Made by a program: the position numbers and the translations under genes. Of a stretch of 64,000 bases of DNA, positions 1-10,517 are shown piece by piece (within the stretch, counting starts at the first letter, position 1; each line of letters opens with the position of its first letter). The DNA comes from Elusimicrobium minutum Pei191. GTDB taxonomy: Bacteria > Elusimicrobiota > Elusimicrobia > Elusimicrobiales > Elusimicrobiaceae. The stretch is from NCBI RefSeq assembly GCF_000020145.1, contig NC_010644.1, positions 1,302,001 through 1,366,000 on the forward strand. The letters run 5' to 3'. The notes under the pieces are model-generated. The model made no database searches and was not told the DNA's origin. It was given only the letters and a program-made list of their open reading frames with translations.

Positions 1-592
1 TTGAAGGCCCGCTAAAAGATTCTATAACGCTGTCAAACTCGCTGTTAATAAGTTCCAGCGTAGGTATTAGAGAACGGCCCCTTCCGCTGAAACTGTCTTT
101 CATTGAATAAACTTTTCCGCCCAATTTAACAGGTGTGTTTAGCCTGTCTAAAGAAATAAGAAAATTAGCTTTAATAGTAATAAAATCAGAAGTAAGTTTA
201 TCTTGCGTTACTGTGGACTGTGTATCAAAAAGTTCTTCTGTCCTTGTAAGAAACTCATAAATATTGGCAAGAGATGTCCTCCACACGTCGGACTCGGTAA
301 GAGTAACCTTGTCTTTTTCATTATAAACAACAGCGCGCTGGTCCATTAACGGAAGTTCTTCTATAAGCCATTTGGGAATTTTTATGGGAGCTTTTTCGCT
401 GCCGCCGCATTTTTCCGGCAAAATAAAAGATTTGCTTTCAACCGGAACTTTGGAGTCTAACATTTGGTAAATAATATAAATTCTTTCACGGGCGCATGTA
501 ATAAGACGTTTTTCTTCCGCGCTAAAAGGCTCCGCAAAAGAAAACGCTGTAATCGACGCCAAAACAAAAGTAAATATTATTTTTCTTATCAT
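1..592 (-). CDS. Secreted hypothetical protein, 3' end outside window
   Basis: The reading frame opens with ATG at 592-590, two bases after the TGA of the upstream ATPase gene, and stays open to the left edge: 197 codons are visible and the C-terminus is missing. Residues 1-20 form a signal peptide (MIRKIIFTFVLASITAFSFA), so the product is probably exported. The mature part contains two cysteines early on (ITCAR and EKCGG) and is otherwise helical and charged, with no domain I recognise. The 2-base spacing suggests translational coupling and membership of the Tad-like operon. TadB/TadC-type platform genes usually follow the ATPase, but this product has only the N-terminal hydrophobic segment in its visible part, so it is not one of them. 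The function is unknown. Confidence 0.8.
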   Translation of the reverse strand, partial: MIRKIIFTFVLASITAFSFAEPFSAEEKRLITCARERIYIIYQMLDSKVPVESKSFILPEKCGGSEKAPIKIPKWLIEELPLMDQRAVVYNEKDKVTLTESDVWRTSLANIYEFLTRTEELFDTQSTVTQDKLTSDFITIKANFLISLDRLNTPVKLGGKVYSMKDSFSGRGRSLIPTLELINSEFDSVIESFSGPS

Positions 593-594
593 GT

Positions 595-2823
595 TCAGTT
601 AACCTTTGGCGGCGCGGGAGTATTAGGCGCGGCAAAAACACTCTCGTCAATATTAATGCCTTTTGATTTAAAATCATCATAAAAAGACGGTTTGTTACCG
701 GTAGCGGCAAAATGACCTTGCACCTTACCTGTTTCTTCATCAATACTTGTTTGTCTGTATCTGAATAAATCGTTGGTGTGAATAATCCCGTCTTTTTGCC
801 CCAGGATTTCCGTAATATAAGTAACTTTTCTCGACCCGTCCGAAAATCTTGAAAGCTGGACTATCATATTAACCGCCGATGACACCATTTCCCTAATAGC
901 CCAAATAGGCAAATCGGCGCTGCCCATCATACACATGGCTTCCAAACGAGTAAGACCGTCTTTAGGGTTATTGGCGTGGATTGTGGCCAAAGAACCGTCG
1001 TGGCCGGTGTTCATAGCCTGCAACATATCCAACGCTTCTTTGCCGCGGCACTCGCCTACTACAATACGGTCAGGTCTCATACGCAGACAGTTTTTAACCA
1101 AATCCTGAATAGTAATTTCACCTTTTCCTTCAATGTTGGCCGGCCTGCTTTCCAAGGAAATCCAGTGTACCTGCTGCAAGCGTAATTCAGCGGTATCTTC
1201 CACGGTAATAATACGTTCGTCCGAAGGAATATAAGTGGAAAGAGCGTTTAAAAATGTGGTTTTACCGGTACCGGTACCGCCGGAAATAATAATATTTTTC
1301 CTGATTTTTACACACTCTTTTAAAAAGTCCATACACTCGCGGCTGATGGTGCCAAATCTGTAATAATCTTCCGGGCCAAAAGGTTTTTGCGAGAATCTTC
1401 TTATAGTAAGCGAAGGGCCCGAAACCGCCAATGGAGCTATAATTGCGTTAACACGCGACCCGTCTTTTAAACGCGCGTCAACTAAGGGCACAGATTCGTC
1501 TATACGTCTTCCCAACGGGGCAACAATTCTTTTAATAACCTGCACAACCTGGTCATTATTTCTGAATCTGTATTTTGTTAAAGTTAATTTACCCTTTTGT
1601 TCAATAAAAATCTTATCAAAAGAGTTAACCATAATTTCTGTAACGCTAGGGTCTCTCATCAAACCTTCTAAAGGCCCTAAACCCAAAATTTCATCTAAAA
1701 GTTCCGTGGCGAACCTTACGCGCTGCTCCCTTGAAAATTGCAAATTAGGCTGCTTTTGCAAAATTTCCTCAATAATTTCCCCCACTCTTTTTCTGGTTTG
1801 CTCGCTGTTAGACTCATCGCTTATAACAATTCTTTCAAGTTCCAAAGCTTTAATAACTTCTTTATGCACTCTTTGTTTAAGCTCATCCCAAAAAGACATT
1901 CTGGCTTCTTCTTCCGCAGTAGCCTCATGGTTAAATTTGGGAACCGCGCCGCCGCCCCCCGCGCCGCCGCCTACAAGAGCCGTCCATATCTCTCTGGAAG
2001 CTTCGGTAAAATCTTCATCGGAGACGCTGCTCATCCAATCTCTTATGGAAGGCGTTACCGTTTCAATCCTGTGAATCAAAATTCTAAGACCTTCGCTAAC
2101 CCAGTCTGAATGGGGGTTTGAAACCGCTTCAATCTCACGCCTGTTTGAGGCCGCCATAACGCTGTCGTCCCACGGTAAAAAAACTGAAACGTCTTTTCCC
2201 AAACTTTTAAAAAATCTGTCAACTTCCTCATGCGCTATAGAGCCGGGCATATCATACATATTACAAACAACGTCAAGACGTTCCATAGGAAAACTCATTT
2301 CCTTATATTCGTTAAACATCTTAACAGTTGTATTTAAATGGTTTCTTGTAGCCTGGGTTATCCAAAAAACTTTATCCGCGATGTCAAAGGCAAATGACTG
2401 CATGGGGAAAGATGAGTCTATATCTAAAAAAATGTCAAAAGTCTGGGAAAGGCGCGCTAAAATAGGCATTAATATCCTAGGGCTCATAGCAGACACCTGG
2501 CCTCTTGTATTGCCAAGCGGCATCACGCCCACGCCGTATTGTGACATCGATATTTTACCACGTAAAAGCCCGCCCGCAACAGCTATTGTGGTTGCGCCTA
2601 AGCTTTTAACTATATCCGCAGCAGTTACCGGGGTTTTAATATCTAAATAAAAAGTATGCTCTTGTCTTGCCAAAGGATCTAAAGGAACTATCAGTACCGG
2701 ACGTTTTTGCATGCCCGCCCACAAAACAGCTAAATTAAGAAGCAAAGTAGTCCTTCCGGCACCTTCTTTAGGCCCTGAAAAAGCGATTACTTTACCTTCT
2801 GTTCTGCCCGATAGTTCTGACAT
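595..2823 (-). CDS. Fused TadZ/CpaE-like and TadA/CpaF pilus assembly ATPase
   Basis: A 742-residue protein made of two parts that are normally separate. Residues 1 to about 265 resemble the ParA/MinD-like CpaE/TadZ localisation factor: the P-loop at residues 17-26 reads [10 protein letters not shown], with Arg in place of the usual Walker A Lys, and a LDIDSSFP strand stands at the position of the second acidic motif. From about residue 310 onward it is a CpaF/TadA secretion ATPase, with an N-terminal helical domain, [12 protein letters not shown], Walker [10 protein letters not shown] near residue 514-523, VEDTAEL, a Walker B region ending in VVGECRG near 587, and the [11 protein letters not shown] histidine box near 613. 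It should power assembly of the Flp-type fibre from the cytoplasmic face of the inner membrane. A glycine/alanine-rich linker (about 285-295) joins the halves. It starts 4 bases after the secretin gene. The GXGRT change suggests weak or no ATP hydrolysis in the first half (inference). Confidence 0.93.
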
Positions 2824-2827
2824 GACG

Positions 2828-3574
2828 TTACTCCACTATTTCTACTGTAACAAATAAGAACAATGATCTCTGTTCGTCTAAAGTATCTTTGTTTCTAAAC
2901 AAAAGCCCTATTAAAGGAAGTCTGCCCAAAAGCGGAATTCTGTCAACGGACACGTTACGGCTGCTACTCTTTAATCCGCCTATAACAAGCGTTTCGCCGC
3001 TGTGAAGTTCAACCTGCGTCTCAACCCTTCTTTTGTTAATTGACGGAACTGTTGTTGAGCCGACTGAAACCGTTCGGGAATAGTCCGGCGCGGAAACCTC
3101 TAAATTAACCTGAAGGTTAATAAGATTGCTTTGTTCTGGAATAATAGTAGGCATTACGTTTAATATAACGCCGTAATCTAACATGCTTGTGCCCACGCCC
3201 TGGTTGTTAACTTCGGGGAAAGGTATTTGTCCGCCTACGGAAATATTGGCGTTTGTACCTGTTCTAGTAACGATTTTGGGGTTAGAAAGTATCTGCGCTT
3301 TACCTTCGTTTTCCATAAGTCTTAACCTTGTTGTAAGAGCCGTCTTTCTTTCAAAAGAGCCTATTTCCAAAACACCCGGTATTTCTTTTTCCGCAAAATC
3401 AAATATATTGTACCAGGAAAACCCGATATTGCTGTTTATCGAACCGCTTATCTCAACGATATCGGCGCTGACAGACACAAGGTTTGTTTTGCGGGCATGA
3501 AGCGCGCCTGGCATTACAAGTAATGCTGCTAGAATTGTTAAACAGACTTTTGATGCAAATTTTTTATTTTTCAT
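2828..3574 (-). CDS. Short secretin (CpaC/RcpA/GspD-type) of the pilus system
   Basis: A 248-residue protein with a signal peptide (residues 1-27, ending near LHA). The rest matches the C-terminal secretin domain: the lip-region motif VGGQIPFPEV, VMPTI, the GETLVIGGL stretch, and the diagnostic C-terminal LLGRLPLIGLLF followed by a final beta strand. Family members of Tad systems (CpaC/RcpA) usually exceed 400 residues because of periplasmic N-domains and often a BON domain. Here only about 20-50 residues precede the secretin core, so the periplasmic part is almost absent. It would form the outer-membrane pore for the fibre. It lies between cpaB and the fused ATPase in the operon. The family call is firm; that it acts as a full pore by itself is inference. 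Confidence 0.88.
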   Translation of the reverse strand: MKNKKFASKVCLTILAALLVMPGALHARKTNLVSVSADIVEISGSINSNIGFSWYNIFDFAEKEIPGVLEIGSFERKTALTTRLRLMENEGKAQILSNPKIVTRTGTNANISVGGQIPFPEVNNQGVGTSMLDYGVILNVMPTIIPEQSNLINLQVNLEVSAPDYSRTVSVGSTTVPSINKRRVETQVELHSGETLVIGGLKSSSRNVSVDRIPLLGRLPLIGLLFRNKDTLDEQRSLFLFVTVEIVE

Positions 3575-3592: not shown

Positions 3593-4354
3593 TTATTTAA
3601 ACATTTCCGTAAGACTGGCTATTGCTATTGAATGTACGCCCTGGTCCTCACGTCTTCTTACTACAAGAGTTATTATGCCTTCTTCTTTAGCTAAGGCCAA
3701 ATACTGCGCGTCCCTGGGGTGTAATGCCAAGCTGATAGCGGAACTGTCGTTAAAAGCTGAAGCGCTTGCTTCTCTTTCTCTGGTAGCTCTGAGTTGGTTA
3801 GCGTCCATACCCTGCCCCAAATCATTACCCACGCCAAGCACTTTAATTCTTTGTAAAATTGTAGCGGTAATTTTTTCTTTCTGTCCGGTGTTCTTCATAT
3901 AAGCGTCGAAAGTTAAAAGCACGTCAACCCAATCGTCCGGCTTAATAAGGTTAGCCACGGAACTCGGAACATCGGTTAAAACAAAACCTCTCCATAAAGG
4001 AGATACCCTAGCGCTTAAACCCGCTTCAGGACTGAGTGAGGTTAAAGCCGCTTTGCTGACTTGGTTTCCTTTTGGAATAGCTATTCTTGTCACAAGGTTA
4101 TTTTCCAATTTTGTTATATCAGAATCTCTTGTAACTGTAAAAGCGTCCTTTTGCAAAAATTTATTAGGCATTTCAATAACGCCCAAATCACCTTTTGTAA
4201 TAACTTTTCTTTCAGGCAAATCCCTGATAGCGATAACAACTCTTTCAAGTTTGCTGTTTTCTTCAAACTTGCTCTGGTTTGAGAAAAGTATTATAAAGTA
4301 AACCACGGCCGCCAAAATAGCTATAACAAGCGGTAGAAATACACCTTTTTTCAT
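3593..4354 (-). CDS. cpaB: CpaB/RcpC-type Flp pilus assembly protein
   Basis: A 253-residue protein with one N-terminal membrane segment (about residues 5-24) and a SAF-type domain at about residues 35-105 (VVIAIRDLPERKVITKGDL, then a basic/hydrophobic RIAIPKGNQVS segment). This arrangement is characteristic of CpaB/RcpC, periplasmic partners of the Tad secretin. Residues 115-250 contain the RcpC-like second half (GFVLTDVPSSVANLIKPDDWVDVLLT). The gene ends 18 bases before the secretin gene and follows tadE in the same operon, which supports the role. Length is normal for the family. Confidence 0.9.
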   Translation of the reverse strand: MKKGVFLPLVIAILAAVVYFIILFSNQSKFEENSKLERVVIAIRDLPERKVITKGDLGVIEMPNKFLQKDAFTVTRDSDITKLENNLVTRIAIPKGNQVSKAALTSLSPEAGLSARVSPLWRGFVLTDVPSSVANLIKPDDWVDVLLTFDAYMKNTGQKEKITATILQRIKVLGVGNDLGQGMDANQLRATREREASASAFNDSSAISLALHPRDAQYLALAKEEGIITLVVRRREDQGVHSIAIASLTEMFK

Positions 4355-4406: not shown

Positions 4407-4874
4407 TTAGTTAAGAAGCGGCCTTTCAACCGGCATCCTCACTGTCGCTCTAAGCTCTCTCCTGCCCAATCTTTTGGGAGGATCGGCAAAAATAAAACTT
4501 GTGCCCGGAAATACCAAACGCACCGGGTAATATACTTCAACAATAACGTCCTCGTTAGGATGCGCAGTAGACTGCGGGTCCATACTTGTTCTGTCTAAAG
4601 ATACTTTAAAAGTAATCTTATCCTGTCTGCCCGCAAACATTAAAGCGCTTTGCTCTTTAAGTTTGCTTTCTATACGTCCTTTGTCCGTAGGGGCGCCCGG
4701 CCTTGTTACGCCGACCATGCCTCCTACCCTTGCCATTTCATACGCTGCGTGGTGGGCTATAATCGTGTGATAGGCGATATTACCAAGTTCAAGAACAAGA
4801 AAAAGCATGAACATAAAAATCGGTAAAATCATCAATAACTCAACTACAGTCTGCCCTCCACGCTTGCGTATCAT
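4407..4874 (-). CDS. TadE-like pseudopilin
   Basis: A 155-residue protein with a short positive N-terminus, the processing-type motif GGQTVVELLMILP with the conserved Glu, and one long hydrophobic helix (about residues 9-32), followed by a periplasmic domain. This is the TadE/TadG minor pseudopilin layout. It lies directly downstream of the Flp pilin gene (11-base gap) and upstream of cpaB. No good Shine-Dalgarno sequence precedes the ATG, so translation may depend on coupling to the pilin gene. Confidence 0.87.
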   Translation of the reverse strand: MIRKRGGQTVVELLMILPIFMFMLFLVLELGNIAYHTIIAHHAAYEMARVGGMVGVTRPGAPTDKGRIESKLKEQSALMFAGRQDKITFKVSLDRTSMDPQSTAHPNEDVIVEVYYPVRLVFPGTSFIFADPPKRLGRRELRATVRMPVERPLLN

Positions 4875-4885
4875 AATGGGGTAAA

Positions 4886-5083
4886 TTACATTTGGCCTAC
4901 GCCGCCAAGAATCTTCGTTTTGATGTTATCAAAAAGCTCAGGCATGAACGCTTTTACGGCAGCGCCGGCTATAAGAGCGACGCCAACGATTACGCCAAGC
5001 ATAAGTAAGTATTCAACTGTACCCTGACCTTTTTTGCTTTTAAGCTGGGCTAAAGCAATTTGCATTTTTACGAAATATTTCAT
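4886..5083 (-). CDS. flp: Flp/Fap-type pilin
   Basis: A 65-residue class III (Flp) prepilin. The basic leader ends at the cleavage-type sequence KKGQGTVEYLLMLG: the Gly-X4-Glu-Tyr core needed for prepilin peptidase processing and fibre assembly is present at residues 20-26. A hydrophobic helix and a short C-terminal tail (LFDNIKTKILGG) follow. Length is typical. A strong Shine-Dalgarno sequence, CGGAGGA, stands 6-7 bases before the ATG, in keeping with a highly expressed major subunit. It is flanked by a second tiny Flp-like gene and by tadE. Confidence 0.93.
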   Translation of the reverse strand: MKYFVKMQIALAQLKSKKGQGTVEYLLMLGVIVGVALIAGAAVKAFMPELFDNIKTKILGGVGQM

Positions 5084-5124: not shown

Positions 5125-5304
5125 CTAGTCTTTTGACTCATACACCGTAAGTATAACTTTTGCGCCCTGTTCAAACTGCAACGGCACTGTTTTTGAATAA
5201 AAAATATAAAAAGACAAAAACACAAAAAACAACGCCACAGTGGTAAAAATATATTCAATAGCGGTTTGCCCGCTTCTACTCTTAAGAGTTTTTAACAGCT
5301 TCAT
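5125..5304 (-). CDS. Second Flp-like pseudopilin, 59 residues
   Basis: A short frame read directly from the minus strand: ATG at 5304, TAG at 5127-5125. The product starts MKLLKTLKSRSGQTAIEYIF, i.e. a basic leader, then GQTAIEY, the same Gly-X4-Glu-Tyr prepilin peptidase signature as the neighbouring Flp pilin, a hydrophobic helix (about residues 15-37) and a short C-terminal segment. An AAAGGGG ribosome-binding site precedes the start by about 6 bases. It sits between the PorV-like gene and the Flp gene on the same strand. It is probably a minor pilin or a TadF-like pseudopilin. Such a short gene is easily missed. Confidence 0.82.
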   Translation of the reverse strand: MKLLKTLKSRSGQTAIEYIFTTVALFFVFLSFYIFYSKTVPLQFEQGAKVILTVYESKD

Positions 5305-5335: not shown

Positions 5336-6310
5336 TTAAAACTGTACGCCTACGGCAACGTTATACGTTGTGCCTAAGGCGCCGAACGGAGTCATGGCAA
5401 AATCAATTCTTGTGCCATAGCCGAAAACTTCATCACTGTATAAACCAAAACCGAAAGAAACTTTAGAAGTATTATCTAAACCGATTTTTTCCGTCCAGCT
5501 TTCATCACTTTTGCCGGTATCTTCGCGTGAGTAATAACCAGCGCGCAAGTCAAACCTGGCAACTTGCAGCAAATCTTCCGGTATATGTATTTCCAAACCT
5601 ACGCCATACTGTAATCTGTAGTCAGTATATTTAATTATTTCACCTACAACCGTCCAGTACTTTGTTTGGAAATGCGCGCCGCCACGCAAACCCGTGGGAA
5701 CTTCGTCAGAATCGCCTAAGTTAACAGCCGCAAAGCCTAAACCTACTTTATTGAAATCAAGTTTAGCGCCTACGTCAAAGGCTACGTTATTGTAATGTTC
5801 GCCGACGTTGTTTTCATTAATATACTTAAAAGTACCGCCAATTTGGAAAATATTATCAAAAAAACCGCGCGCTATAGAAGCCATGCCGACAAAGTTTCTA
5901 ACATCACCATCAACGCCTTCCGTCTGAGGAGTACCTTGGCTGTTTCTCCATTCAAAACCGTCCATGTCCATATAATTACCGGACAAAGCTATAATTGTTT
6001 TTCCCATAGGTTGTATATAAGATAATGTCCTTGCCTTATAGCCCTGCAGCCAGTCAAGATACGATAAGTGCACTTCTCTGCTGGTAGCCGTTGAAATACC
6101 GGCCGGGTTCCAAAAAAGTGAGTCGGCCCCGTCAGCTAAAGATACATACGCGTTACCCAAAGCCTGCGCCCTGGGGCTTCCGAATGGAAGTTTTAAAAAC
6201 GCACTTGCGCTTGTACCCGCACCTTTATATCCCCCCGATTGGGCATATAATCCCGAAGCACACAATACCGTTATTGCCAAAGTTACTAATATTTTAAAGT
6301 ATTTATTCAT
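5336..6310 (-). CDS. PorV/PorQ-family outer-membrane beta-barrel protein
   Basis: A 324-residue protein with a signal peptide (residues 1-23, ending LYAQ) and the typical start of the PorV/UPF0164 family: GAGTSASAFLKLPFGSPRAQALGNAYVSLADGADSLFWNPAG. The remainder alternates polar and hydrophobic residues as in a beta barrel and ends in an aromatic residue (VAVGVQF), the usual outer-membrane insertion signal. In Bacteroidota, PorV shuttles type IX secretion cargo, but related barrels occur in phyla without that system. It follows the 1397-residue surface protein by 13 bases, and that protein has a type IX-like C-terminus, so a cargo/barrel pair is plausible (inference). The family call is firm; the function is not. 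Confidence 0.85.
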   Translation of the reverse strand: MNKYFKILVTLAITVLCASGLYAQSGGYKGAGTSASAFLKLPFGSPRAQALGNAYVSLADGADSLFWNPAGISTATSREVHLSYLDWLQGYKARTLSYIQPMGKTIIALSGNYMDMDGFEWRNSQGTPQTEGVDGDVRNFVGMASIARGFFDNIFQIGGTFKYINENNVGEHYNNVAFDVGAKLDFNKVGLGFAAVNLGDSDEVPTGLRGGAHFQTKYWTVVGEIIKYTDYRLQYGVGLEIHIPEDLLQVARFDLRAGYYSREDTGKSDESWTEKIGLDNTSKVSFGFGLYSDEVFGYGTRIDFAMTPFGALGTTYNVAVGVQF

Positions 6311-6323
6311 ATTCTCATTTTAC

Positions 6324-9300
6324 CTATGGTATTAAGATTTTGACAACTCTTTGGCAATGTTCTTTGCCGCCGCCTGTCGCTTTAAATTCAACTAAACCGA
6401 AGTATACACCCCTGGCAACGGTTCTGCCATGGTCGTTTTTCTTATCCCATTCGCAGCGGAGTTCCGCGTTTCTGAGATTTGTAAAATCGCCCGTAGGTGC
6501 TGTGCCGCCCTGGGCGCCGTTATCGGGTTGTATGCGCAAGCTCGAGCCCATTGTGACAGTGTTATTATTATTATCAACACAAGAGTAGTTTTGGGTCCTT
6601 ATCTGGTCTCCCGCGATATTGTAAATCTTAACGGACATGTCGCCCGGCACGGGGATCTTTGTCACTTCAAAATATGCTTTATTGCTTCTCATGGGATTAG
6701 GGAAGAAGATTACGGATTTTTCCCAATCCGAGCAGACAAATTTACCGTCGCCTCTTGCAACCGTAAATTCCGTAGGCTGCATGTTAGCATATTTTTCCCA
6801 GTCGGCGATATTTCTTATATCATCGATAGTACCGTAAAAACTGTCCATATGGTTGGTATTACCCTGTGTTACGCTGACAAACCTGAAAGGATATAAACCG
6901 TCCGGAACGTCTTGCATAGCAAAGTCTTTACCGTCCCAAACATCTTCAATAGATAAAAGGTTGGGCCTCATACCCACAATGGCTTTAACAAGCAAGTCTT
7001 TTTCGCTTGATGAGCTTGACGTGGAACATGTTATTCTTCTGTTCGGCGCCGAACCTTCAATACTTGCGAATGTTCCGCTTGCCGTACAGAAAGAACTGGG
7101 CGCTAAAAGCTGCGCCGGGGTACAAACAGGGCTGCCCTGGGCCGGGTTTTCATAACAGCTTGAATTAACAAATGAGCCGTTGGCAACTTCACCCGTGGAA
7201 TAATCCTTAATATATGTACCGGGTTTAAAAATTTGTATACCCACTTTCATGGGAACCGAAGTCTGGTAAGCAAACAAGCCTACTTGCTGGCGTTCGGCTA
7301 TATCTTCTACATAAATGTCGAATATTTGGAATAAGTTGGCGTTAAGAAGCCTTGTTTCCGTTGCTTCGTAAGCGGAAGGACATACAAGTATTCTGTTTGG
7401 CGCTGTACCTGACACCTGCGCCGCGCTGCCGTCCGAACATAAGCCGGCTGGGGTTGCGAGTTCAGCAGTGGTACATCTTCTGTGCCCTATAATAGAGGGC
7501 GATTCGTAACAGTACGTCTCCGAACCCACAAAAGAAGGATTGCTTACTTCCAAAGGATAGCCGTTTGCTCTTAATCTTACGGTGTAAGCGCCGGAGGCGA
7601 CGTAGTTGCCAAAATTATCTTTACCGTCCCAGAATACTCTGGCCGCTTTATTACCTTCAAAAATATTTTGCAGGCCAAACTGGTTAAAACCGCTGTCCTT
7701 AATTGTGCGGCAAACAGGCTGTGAAACGTTACTCGCTATAGGATTGCCGTAACAGTCTTTGCCGTCTCTTGAAAGTATATCAATATCAACCTGAGCGGTG
7801 CGTGAAACCGTAAACTCTATAGTATAGGAAGGAACATTGTTAACTACTTCCGTAGAGTGATACAGTTTAGGCGTTGAGCCTGAAATTTTAATTGAGGCGG
7901 GCACAAAGTAAACTCCGCCGCGGGTAACGTTAATAAAGCCCGTTACACGGTCTGAAGAATATATGGAACCGTAACCGCCCACACTGCTGCCTGCCACAAA
8001 AGGATTCTGAGGGCTCATTGAAACAACAGGGAAAGCGCCGTCATAATAAATCGATCCGGGAGCGGTTGACGAGGCTATTATTATATAAGGATACTGCCCG
8101 TCGGCCACAGGACTCGCGTCGGCCTGATTGGTGCCGTCCCAAGTTTCTGTATTTGTCAAGCCTTCACCCGCTTTTACGCCTCTGTAAGATTTAAGCGGCA
8201 TATTGCCGTTATATTCACCCGTAACAAGGTTTAACCCCACGGGCGGCCATGTTGCCGTAATATCATTAGGAATACTTACGCTCTTATCATATATATATAT
8301 ATCAACATTTTGCGTTTTGGTAAGAGAGTATGATAATGTGGCAAAGGCATTTGTTTCACCCAAAAGCGGGGTGTCGGCAACGTCTACCACTCTAAAGATA
8401 TCAATGGGAAATAAAGCAGTTTGTGAGTAAACTTTATCCGGGAAAATAGGATCTCTGGTGGTAACTTCCAAAGAATATGTACCGGGTGAAGGATAGCGGC
8501 CGTAGTCGTCAAGGCCGTCCCACTTAAACTGATTCATTTGCTGGGCTACCTGTACCTGGTCTTTAATAATTGTTTTTACCACCACATTAGCGGTATTTTT
8601 AACAACAACCGTTGTAGGCGCTTCCCTTGAAATTGAATAGTTAAATTCAAACGGGTCTAAACCGTAAGCTATAGGGCTTGAACCCATTGTTGAGTATTTA
8701 ACAGGCTGTATTGTTATATCAACATTACCTCTGTCTATAGGTATAATACCGTTATGGTACATTCTTGTTTTGACAGCGTAGAAAACGTTGCCCGCGGCGT
8801 TTGTATAAGTATCGCCTGTATAAGGTATTTCAGCCCAGATAACGTACACATAGTTGCCATCAGGTAAATACTGGCCTAAATCATAAGCGCCGCCGCCTAT
8901 AGCGGTTGGGAAAGCACAGCCTCCCGCCATGCCACAGGTGCCGTCCCACTTGGTGTTGACAGTGTTTCTCTTACCCTTTTGCTCAATATTTTCATAAACT
9001 AAAACACCGCCGGTTACCGTGGGTTTTGTTCCCGCTGCTGTGGGGGCTACCGCGCCGGTTGTCGGATTGGTGTCAATATATACGTTTGATACTGTGGTGC
9101 CGGGAGTGTAAACCTGGAAGTATACTGTGGCTGCTTCGGTTAATAAATAGGAAATAGACGCATAAGCCGTGGACATTTGGTTTAAACCGGTAATAACACG
9201 GTCTGTTAATTTTAAAGGATCAAGGGTAAGGTCATAAGTTTTTTCTCCTGAAACGTCATTACCCCATTCGTCCGATTTTTGCGCTTTTATAGCAACCAAA

Positions 9301-10517
9301 TAGTTGCCGGGCGGCAGTAAGCGGCCCGTGTTATCCCTTCCGTCAAAAGGTTCTTCTTCCACAGTGGCGGTAACTTCAGGGTTGTTTGGCAATTGCCCGC
9401 CGTCGGGAGAGCCTTCACCCAGCCTGGGTTCATCATTAATAAGCGTTCTTCTTAAAGCGGTTGTGCTGCTTGTATCAACAGGAGTTGTTGCGCTTGAGTC
9501 AAAAATCCTCATCGTTACGTTAGCATCTTTAGACAAGCGGTATTTTATTTTATAAGGCTCGGTAGCAACGGCTTCAATGTTGCCAACAACGGTAGCTGTC
9601 GTACGTACAGAATGGACGTTTGTAACATCAATTAAAATAGGCTGCTGGTTTTGACCGGGATATACGGCTACATGGTCAATTTCAATAGGAGTTTCGGAAA
9701 TTGTTACAGGCGGCTGGAAAGTAGTTTGTATTCTTGCCCTTACGCCAAATGTTCCGTTTGTTTTGGCAAATTCGCTGTCAAAGTTATAAGCCCCGTCCCA
9801 CGCGGCGCAAAACCTAAGAACGTTGTCGGCGTCATTAATTGTTGTAGAAGCGGTGACCTGAGCGCCATGCGGGCAACTTGTTTGTAATGCCGGCGGAGTT
9901 CCCGCACCTGTGTCGCAATATATATTTGTACTGTTGGGGTCATTTATTTTATAACCGCCGCATCTGTAAACACCGCCCGTGGGATACAAATTTATGGTTC
10001 TGATAGCGGGGGTTGCTTTGTCATCTTCAGGGTTGCTTTGCTCTAAAAATTTAAAAATTTCAAACCTTACGGTTTGTATGGGATAAGACGGAGTAGGCGA
10101 CACATTGTCAGATATTGTTGAACATTGAACCGTAACGCAAAGCTGCAAACAATGGTTGGGATATCTGTACCCGGCGCTCCATAAAGGCGTGCCGGAAGCA
10201 GCGGAAGCTGAGGTCCAGTTAAACGGTTTGTCAAATTCAATAAGAGCGGAGTTTATGGTAGGGTCAATCACTCCTACAGGATTAATGGAATTTGTTGTGA
10301 TAAAACTAACTTCTTGCCCGGGGATTTGACTATCGCAATAAATAGGGCTTGTTAAACCGGTAGTAGGGTAGGCCGTAAAAACTTTACTTATTTGCGCTGT
10401 TTGAGCCGTCGCGGCCGCTGAAAATATTGTTGTAAATATTAAGGAAAAAATAATTTTTATGAGGATTTTTTTTCCGGAGAAAAGAGTTGAATAGTTGTTT
10501 TGTTTTTTACTGTTCAT
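6324..10517 (-). CDS. Giant secreted protein with seven FlgD-Ig-like repeats
   Basis: A 1397-residue protein, the first gene of the operon. A long basic N-terminus and signal peptide (to about residue 39, ATAQ) indicate export. Seven copies of a module built as a beta sandwich ending in WDG-x-D-x2-G-x4-GxY occur near residues 391, 523, 666, 793, 962, 1194 and 1356 (for example FWDGKDNFGNYVASGAY). This matches FlgD Ig-like domains. The last copy ends in ARGVYFGLVEFKATGGG and a basic beta strand, VVKILIP, very like type A sorting domains of type IX secretion cargo. Paired cysteines are frequent in residues 1000-1150, and several inserts contain SxCYENP/SxPxCTxAxL repeats. The probable place is the cell surface. 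It lies next to a PorV-like barrel. The specific function is unknown. Confidence 0.85.
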   Translation of the reverse strand: MNSKKQNNYSTLFSGKKILIKIIFSLIFTTIFSAAATAQTAQISKVFTAYPTTGLTSPIYCDSQIPGQEVSFITTNSINPVGVIDPTINSALIEFDKPFNWTSASAASGTPLWSAGYRYPNHCLQLCVTVQCSTISDNVSPTPSYPIQTVRFEIFKFLEQSNPEDDKATPAIRTINLYPTGGVYRCGGYKINDPNSTNIYCDTGAGTPPALQTSCPHGAQVTASTTINDADNVLRFCAAWDGAYNFDSEFAKTNGTFGVRARIQTTFQPPVTISETPIEIDHVAVYPGQNQQPILIDVTNVHSVRTTATVVGNIEAVATEPYKIKYRLSKDANVTMRIFDSSATTPVDTSSTTALRRTLINDEPRLGEGSPDGGQLPNNPEVTATVEEEPFDGRDNTGRLLPPGNYLVAIKAQKSDEWGNDVSGEKTYDLTLDPLKLTDRVITGLNQMSTAYASISYLLTEAATVYFQVYTPGTTVSNVYIDTNPTTGAVAPTAAGTKPTVTGGVLVYENIEQKGKRNTVNTKWDGTCGMAGGCAFPTAIGGGAYDLGQYLPDGNYVYVIWAEIPYTGDTYTNAAGNVFYAVKTRMYHNGIIPIDRGNVDITIQPVKYSTMGSSPIAYGLDPFEFNYSISREAPTTVVVKNTANVVVKTIIKDQVQVAQQMNQFKWDGLDDYGRYPSPGTYSLEVTTRDPIFPDKVYSQTALFPIDIFRVVDVADTPLLGETNAFATLSYSLTKTQNVDIYIYDKSVSIPNDITATWPPVGLNLVTGEYNGNMPLKSYRGVKAGEGLTNTETWDGTNQADASPVADGQYPYIIIASSTAPGSIYYDGAFPVVSMSPQNPFVAGSSVGGYGSIYSSDRVTGFINVTRGGVYFVPASIKISGSTPKLYHSTEVVNNVPSYTIEFTVSRTAQVDIDILSRDGKDCYGNPIASNVSQPVCRTIKDSGFNQFGLQNIFEGNKAARVFWDGKDNFGNYVASGAYTVRLRANGYPLEVSNPSFVGSETYCYESPSIIGHRRCTTAELATPAGLCSDGSAAQVSGTAPNRILVCPSAYEATETRLLNANLFQIFDIYVEDIAERQQVGLFAYQTSVPMKVGIQIFKPGTYIKDYSTGEVANGSFVNSSCYENPAQGSPVCTPAQLLAPSSFCTASGTFASIEGSAPNRRITCSTSSSSSEKDLLVKAIVGMRPNLLSIEDVWDGKDFAMQDVPDGLYPFRFVSVTQGNTNHMDSFYGTIDDIRNIADWEKYANMQPTEFTVARGDGKFVCSDWEKSVIFFPNPMRSNKAYFEVTKIPVPGDMSVKIYNIAGDQIRTQNYSCVDNNNNTVTMGSSLRIQPDNGAQGGTAPTGDFTNLRNAELRCEWDKKNDHGRTVARGVYFGLVEFKATGGGKEHCQRVVKILIP

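What the first reader, a model, noticed from the sequence alone, without database searches (positions are those of the whole stretch)
595..2823. TadZ/CpaE-like domain fused to the TadA/CpaF ATPase
The Tad localisation factor and the motor ATPase are normally separate proteins. Here one 742-residue chain carries both, with Arg replacing the Walker A Lys in the first P-loop (GAGRTT). This could tether the motor directly to a pole- or membrane-locating domain.
Basis: partly seen in the sequence, partly recalled or inferred. Interest (0 to 1): 0.7.

Follow-up and report, generated by a model that had tools for sequence, protein, structure and literature searches.

The report
TadZ domain fused to TadA motor
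In this gut bacterium the motor that builds a sticky surface pilus and its positioning partner are joined into one protein, and the same joined protein recurs in at least four bacterial phyla, in some of which the partner has lost its ATP-binding motif but is still kept.

Summary
Window 595-2823(-) is one open frame of 742 aa. Residues 7-255 are a ParA/MinD-fold domain, closest in structure to TadZ-like 3ea0. Residues 310-735 are a complete CpaF/TadA, joined by a glycine-rich linker inside a tad operon. The genome (1,643,562 bp, apparently Elusimicrobium minutum) has no other TadZ. It is not a sequencing error: full-length fusions recur across Elusimicrobiota in many independent assemblies. 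Nor is it phylum-specific: 129 of 144 Bdellovibrionota and about 54 of 145 Omnitrophota genomes carry it, and one WOR-3 contig. The Walker A Arg is a local change (3 of 30 loci of the family); about half of ordinary TadZ proteins also lack that Lys. In other Elusimicrobiota classes the P-loop is gone, yet in Endomicrobiia, where tested, the ParA fold remains under purifying selection. The fused domain lacks the ~140-aa N-terminal (receiver) part of most separate TadZ proteins. Best reading: TadZ has become a fixed 1:1 structural part of the Tad motor, and its ATP cycle is dispensable. The pole- or membrane-locating role is untested; no clear amphipathic helix was found. I found no description of this fusion in the open literature searched. 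New variant of a known kind.

The parts
595..2823 (-). tadZ-tadA fusion gene, 742 aa
   Evidence: single frame, ATG start, stop at 595; full-length homologues in many genomes
2050..2799 (-). residues 9-258: TadZ-like ParA/MinD-fold domain, no receiver domain before it
   Evidence: CbiA hit; profile hits to FleN, 3ea0, MinD and ErTadZ 3fkq; model residues 7-255 match 3ea0 with Z 24.2, rmsd 2.6, 239 aligned
2746..2769 (-). first P-loop KEGAGRTT (residues 19-26), Arg24 in place of Lys (codon 2752-2754)
   Evidence: sequence; alignment with relatives
1897..1977 (-). linker, residues 283-309, Gly-rich
   Evidence: pLDDT under 50 for 283-301; length and sequence vary among relatives
619..1896 (-). 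residues 310-735: complete TadA/CpaF motor including NTD1
   Evidence: TIGR03819; CpaF structures 9e24, 8rjf, 8rkd with Z 34-37 over residues 80-503 of CpaF
1255..1281 (-). TadA Walker [10 protein letters not shown] (residues 515-523), intact
   Evidence: sequence; GKT core conserved in the aligned relatives
2..592 (-). N-terminal part of the TadB-like platform protein; the gene is 535 aa and runs out of the window
2828..3574 (-). short secretin (RcpA/CpaC-like), 248 aa, 4 nt upstream of the fusion
   Evidence: Pfam Secretin 1.1e-42
3593..4354 (-). CpaB/RcpC
   Evidence: TIGR03177 1.1e-32
4407..4874 (-). TadE-like pseudopilin
   Evidence: Pfam TadE 2.8e-10
4886..5083 (-). probable Flp pilin, 65 aa (GQGTVEYLLML motif)
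   Evidence: frame and motif read by eye; not profile-tested
5125..5304 (-). second small Flp/TadF-like pilin, 59 aa (GQTAIEY motif)
   Evidence: frame and motif read by eye; not profile-tested

Best explanation
The gene encodes a real TadZ-TadA fusion that works as the motor of a Tad (Flp) pilus. Shown: a receiver-less TadZ (ParA/MinD fold) is joined by a flexible linker to the NTD1 of an intact CpaF/TadA ATPase, in the operon position where separate tadZ and tadA usually lie next to each other. Inferred: the motor assembles as a hexamer like CpaF, so each ring carries six tethered TadZ domains at a fixed 1:1 ratio on the NTD1 side. There they act mainly as a structural scaffold or clamp that holds the motor against its platform and site, with the ParA-type ATP switch reduced (Arg24 here) or lost (Endomicrobiia and others), while TadA does all the ATP-driven work.
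For: Domain identities by profile and by fold. The same full-length fusion across Elusimicrobiota with conserved gene order cpaB-[secretin]-fusion-tadB-tadC. No other TadZ in the genome, nor in the fused loci from other phyla. The separate arrangement with tadZ directly upstream of tadA, 99 nt apart and in the same frame, exists in Paraburkholderia terrae, and 44 of 51 plain TadA loci have a TadZ within the fetched flanks (my count). The Endomicrobiia N-domain has no P-loop and no Pfam ParA match, but folds as ParA/MinD (pLDDT 88.5; 3ea0 Z 18.8), is linked by profiles (A3 v A4 E 5e-14), and has dN/dS well below 1 (about 0.11-0.32), so the fold rather than the ATP site is what is kept. The TadA Walker A is intact in the aligned relatives. 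In Caulobacter, CpaE dimers were modelled as a ring around the CpaF hexamer (PMC13170226), and CpaF residues 1-79 are disordered with NTD1 at the top of the ring (PMC11300603), which leaves room for such a tether.
Against: No experiment and no multimer model: hexamer assembly, 1:1 stoichiometry and docking are inferred. Most of the class keeps Lys in the first P-loop, so ATP binding may still matter there. The 1:1 ratio conflicts with the 12:6 CpaE:CpaF ratio modelled in Caulobacter. Whether the chain stays whole in the cell is unknown.
Confidence: 0.62

Rival explanations
1. Localisation tether: the fused domain keeps the classical TadZ task and brings the motor to a pole or patch of membrane; the fusion only makes recruitment obligatory.
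For: TadZ/CpaE is required for polar localisation of Tad machinery (PMC6581867; PMC6668835). The fused domain is a TadZ relative.
Against: The receiver part of separate TadZ is missing. No strong amphipathic helix after the domain. The P-loop needed for an ATP switch is gone in several classes. Compatible with the scaffold reading rather than exclusive of it.
Confidence: 0.25
2. The polypeptide is made as a fusion but acts as two proteins: an internal start (for example Met307) or cleavage in the disordered linker releases free TadA, giving mixed hexamers.
For: Disordered, variable linker; purine-rich stretch upstream of Met307 in this genome.
Against: Met307 is not conserved: Ile or Leu codons other than common starts in the closest relatives examined. 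Fusion kept in four phyla.
Confidence: 0.08
3. Neutral operon compaction: the two neighbouring genes fused without functional consequence and the N-domain is decaying.
For: Neighbouring same-frame tadZ and tadA exist; the P-loop decays in many lineages; the N-domain diverges faster than TadA.
Against: dN/dS well below 1 in the P-loop-less N-domain; fold retained; length retained across the sampled classes.
Confidence: 0.05

Closest known systems
TadA/CpaF of Caulobacter crescentus (8rjf, 8rkd, 9e24)
   Same: whole motor, NTD1 to CTD, 42-43% identity over residues 310-735
   Different: its N-terminal ~79 residues are disordered (PMC11300603); here a TadZ domain takes that place
TadZ/CpaE (Eubacterium rectale 3fkq; Chlorobium tepidum ParA-family 3ea0)
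   Same: ParA/MinD fold; atypical P-loop Lys position
   Different: the fused domain lacks the receiver domain and is covalently attached to TadA
FHA-TadA motors, e.g. KilF of Myxococcus xanthus (PMC8460266)
   Same: TadA with an extra N-terminal domain in the same place
   Different: the extra domain is FHA, not TadZ; no TadZ was found near the 16 FHA-TadA loci examined
FlaH-FlaI of the archaellum (Denise et al. 2019, PMC6668835, compares TadZ with FlaH by gene order)
   Same: a motor ATPase with a second P-loop partner encoded beside it
   Different: separate proteins; FlaH is another P-loop family (own knowledge); comparison by analogy only

Membership tests
TadA/CpaF motor ATPase | T2SSE core with Walker A GxxGxGKT | tested here: met
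TadA/CpaF motor ATPase | NTD1 + NTD2 + CTD fold of CpaF | tested here: met
   Z 34-37 over CpaF residues 80-503
TadA/CpaF motor ATPase | NCBIfam TadA model TIGR03819 curated cut-off (373 bits) | tested here: not met
   329.8 bits, best of all models but under the cut-off; that hypothetical-equivalog model describes a subset of the family and is not itself a defining feature; the fold test above is met
TadA/CpaF motor ATPase | lies in a tad operon with CpaB, secretin, TadB, TadC, pilins | tested here: met
   (pilins by motif only)
TadA/CpaF motor ATPase | hexameric, powers extension and retraction | not testable with these tools
   no multimer modelling or assay
TadZ/CpaE | ParA/MinD (CbiA) fold | tested here: met
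TadZ/CpaE | sequence relation to known TadZ (3ea0, 3fkq) | tested here: met
   profile A1 v 3ea0 8e-11, v 3fkq 9e-6; A2 v 3ea0 1e-26; FleN scores slightly better with A1, so family placement rests also on gene context
TadZ/CpaE | N-terminal (atypical) receiver domain | tested here: not met
   the ParA domain starts at residue ~9; separate TadZ have a median of 139.5 residues before it, Response_reg in the two tested; 8 of 50 separate TadZ are also short, so the domain is common but not universal in the family
TadZ/CpaE | polar localisation hub | not testable with these tools
   needs microscopy
ParA/MinD ATPases | deviant Walker A KGGxGK[ST] | tested here: not met
   KEGAGRTT in the window; KEGxGK[ST] in most of the class; lost in other classes

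The most novel reading that the evidence does not exclude
TadZ is in essence a non-catalytic, stoichiometric subunit of the Tad motor (a clamp or coupling ring on TadA), and ATP-driven polar positioning through a receiver-ParA protein is an elaboration of one branch. Whole lineages run Tad motors with an ATP-site-free pseudo-ParA domain fused to TadA, or swap it for FHA.
Probability: 0.3. Interest if true: 0.7.

Novelty: new variant of a known kind. Interest (0 to 1): 0.5.

Why it matters
What TadZ/CpaE does at the Tad motor is unsettled: positioning, scaffold, or part of the engine. A covalent fusion kept across several phyla argues for direct and constant contact between TadZ and TadA, fixes their ratio at 1:1 (against the 12:6 modelled in Caulobacter), and provides natural versions without an ATP site. 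Since nearly every sampled Bdellovibrionota genome has it, the idea can be tested in Bdellovibrio, where genetics exist, by deleting or changing the N-domain, and the single chain may ease structural work on the complex.

Tried and rejected
Sequencing or frameshift artefact: rejected, many independent assemblies. A second TadZ in the genome: none (best other match E 0.19). Internal start at Met307: not conserved. Membrane-targeting helix after the ParA domain: weak (best window rank 27 of 729 by hydrophobic moment), acidic, not convincing. Arg24 as a key feature: rejected as lineage-specific. Elusimicrobiota-only fusion: rejected. Plasmid records: only 2 of the 5,000 records kept cover 80% or more of the query, and both are unfused P. 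terrae. Single v multiple origin: the TadA tree puts all fused and FHA forms apart from 51 plain TadA except two FHA rows (SH-aLRT 91), needs 4 changes for the TadZ-fused label, and does not rule out one origin. The N-domain tree agrees except for a long-branch WOR-3 row; I do not claim a single origin. Two papers on TadZ (Xu 2012, Perez-Cheeks 2012) were not held.

Full report
Observation. The 742-aa frame at 595-2823(-) is intact. Its N-terminal half is a ParA/MinD domain and its C-terminal half a TadA/CpaF ATPase. An AlphaFold2 model from 38 relatives gives two confident halves and a linker with pLDDT under 50 at 283-301. Against the PDB, residues 310-735 match CpaF (Z 34-37) and residues 7-255 match the ParA-family 3ea0 (Z 24.2).

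Context. The fusion sits in a tad operon on the minus strand: PorV-like protein, two small Flp-like pilins, TadE, CpaB, a short secretin, the fusion, TadB, TadC, and a TPR protein. The same order holds in nearly all fetched loci of the class, and cpaB-fusion-tadB-tadC holds in other classes. No other TadZ homologue was found in the genome.

Distribution in the phylum. In a sample of 294 Elusimicrobiota genomes the listed matches, nearly all full-length, have 52-84% identity over the whole chain. Deeper lineages carry mostly 660-840 aa frames, with 39-57% identity over the whole chain or over the motor part. Endomicrobiia keep frames of about 630-700 aa conserved among themselves. A few lineages (for example family f6, L084-L085) have a TadA with a different N-terminal part.

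The N-domain changes. Most of the class has KEG[VA]GK[ST]. Arg occurs only in the window's genus and one more locus of the family (3 of 30). Two families have KGGVGQT. In the remaining classes the P-loop is unrecognisable, while the TadA Walker A is intact. Profiles still link these domains to each other (class v Q-type 3e-24, Q-type v degenerate 8e-56, degenerate v Endomicrobiia 5e-14). The Endomicrobiia N-domain, with no ParA hit in Pfam, is modelled at pLDDT 88.5 and matches 3ea0 best (Z 18.8, rmsd 3.2, 224 aligned). Its dN/dS is about 0.11-0.32 in the pairs examined; some pairs have dS near or above 1, so these values are rough.

Outside the phylum. A scan of GTDB genome contigs with a TadA alignment returned 80 diverse loci. 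Seven carry a TadZ-like domain in the TadA frame: two Elusimicrobiota, and Bdellovibrionales, Oligoflexia, a groundwater Deltaproteobacterium, Omnitrophota and WOR-3 (CbiA or AAA_31 in the four checked with Pfam). In a sample of 144 genomes of the Oligoflexia locus's phylum (taken here as Bdellovibrionota), 129 have a nearly full-length fusion (count by hand). In a sample of 145 genomes of the Omnitrophota locus's phylum, about 54 do. Plain TadA loci usually have a separate TadZ nearby (44 of 51), with about 140 residues before the ParA domain, a response-regulator receiver in the two tested. FHA-TadA loci (0 of 16) and TadZ-fused loci (0 of 7) show no separate TadZ within the fetched flanks. 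The FHA-TadA form is already described for Myxococcus KilF (PMC8460266).

Evolution. The TadA tree groups fused and FHA forms apart from plain TadA except two FHA rows (SH-aLRT 91); the TadZ-fused label needs 4 changes on that tree and starred branches force only one. The N-domain tree separates fused from separate TadZ except the long-branched WOR-3 row. One ancient fusion with later spread, loss and FHA replacement is possible but not shown. Three unfused Elusimicrobiota TadA copies beside secretins fall near the fused ones.

Mechanism. In Caulobacter, CpaE dimers were fitted as a ring around the CpaF hexamer and thought to contact each other through receiver domains (PMC13170226). CpaF's first 79 residues are disordered and NTD1 protrudes at the top (PMC11300603). 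The fusion puts a receiver-less TadZ exactly there. Loss of the ATP site with the fold kept suggests a structural task. This step is inference.

Novelty. In the open-access papers searched I found no description of a TadZ-TadA fusion. Denise et al. 2019 reports Tad systems in Elusimicrobia without mentioning it in the passages found. Subscription papers and domain-architecture databases were not available, so an earlier mention cannot be excluded. It is a new variant of a known kind.

Noticed in passing
L143-L148, L150-L152, L156, L157, L160, L163, L170, L179, L181, L207: TadA proteins with an N-terminal FHA domain (Pfam FHA or a profile built from such rows) lie in loci where no TadZ was detected within the fetched flanks, in Gamma-, Beta- and Deltaproteobacteria, Lentisphaeria and others: FHA may substitute for TadZ.
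   Followed up: partly
window 2828-3574: The Tad secretin is very short (248 aa), like the short KilC secretin of Myxococcus reported to lack N0 (PMC8460266).
   Followed up: no
window 2-592 and L006 9986-11593: The TadB-like protein is ~535 aa with a signal-peptide-like start and ~220 extra N-terminal residues in this class; other classes have ~300 aa.
   Followed up: no
window 5336-10517: A PorV/UPF0164-like protein lies directly upstream of the pilin genes in almost all class members, next to a 1397-aa protein with FlgD-Ig and type IX sorting-like domains.
   Followed up: no
L007 6712-7781 (G000 C1 ~84.7-85.8 kb): A PilT-like ATPase appears broken into two adjacent frames (178 and 151 aa).
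   Followed up: no
L091 16388-17608, L092 6420-7520, L099 6490-7560: Unfused TadA copies directly downstream of a secretin in some Elusimicrobiota that also have a fused copy; function unknown.
   Followed up: partly
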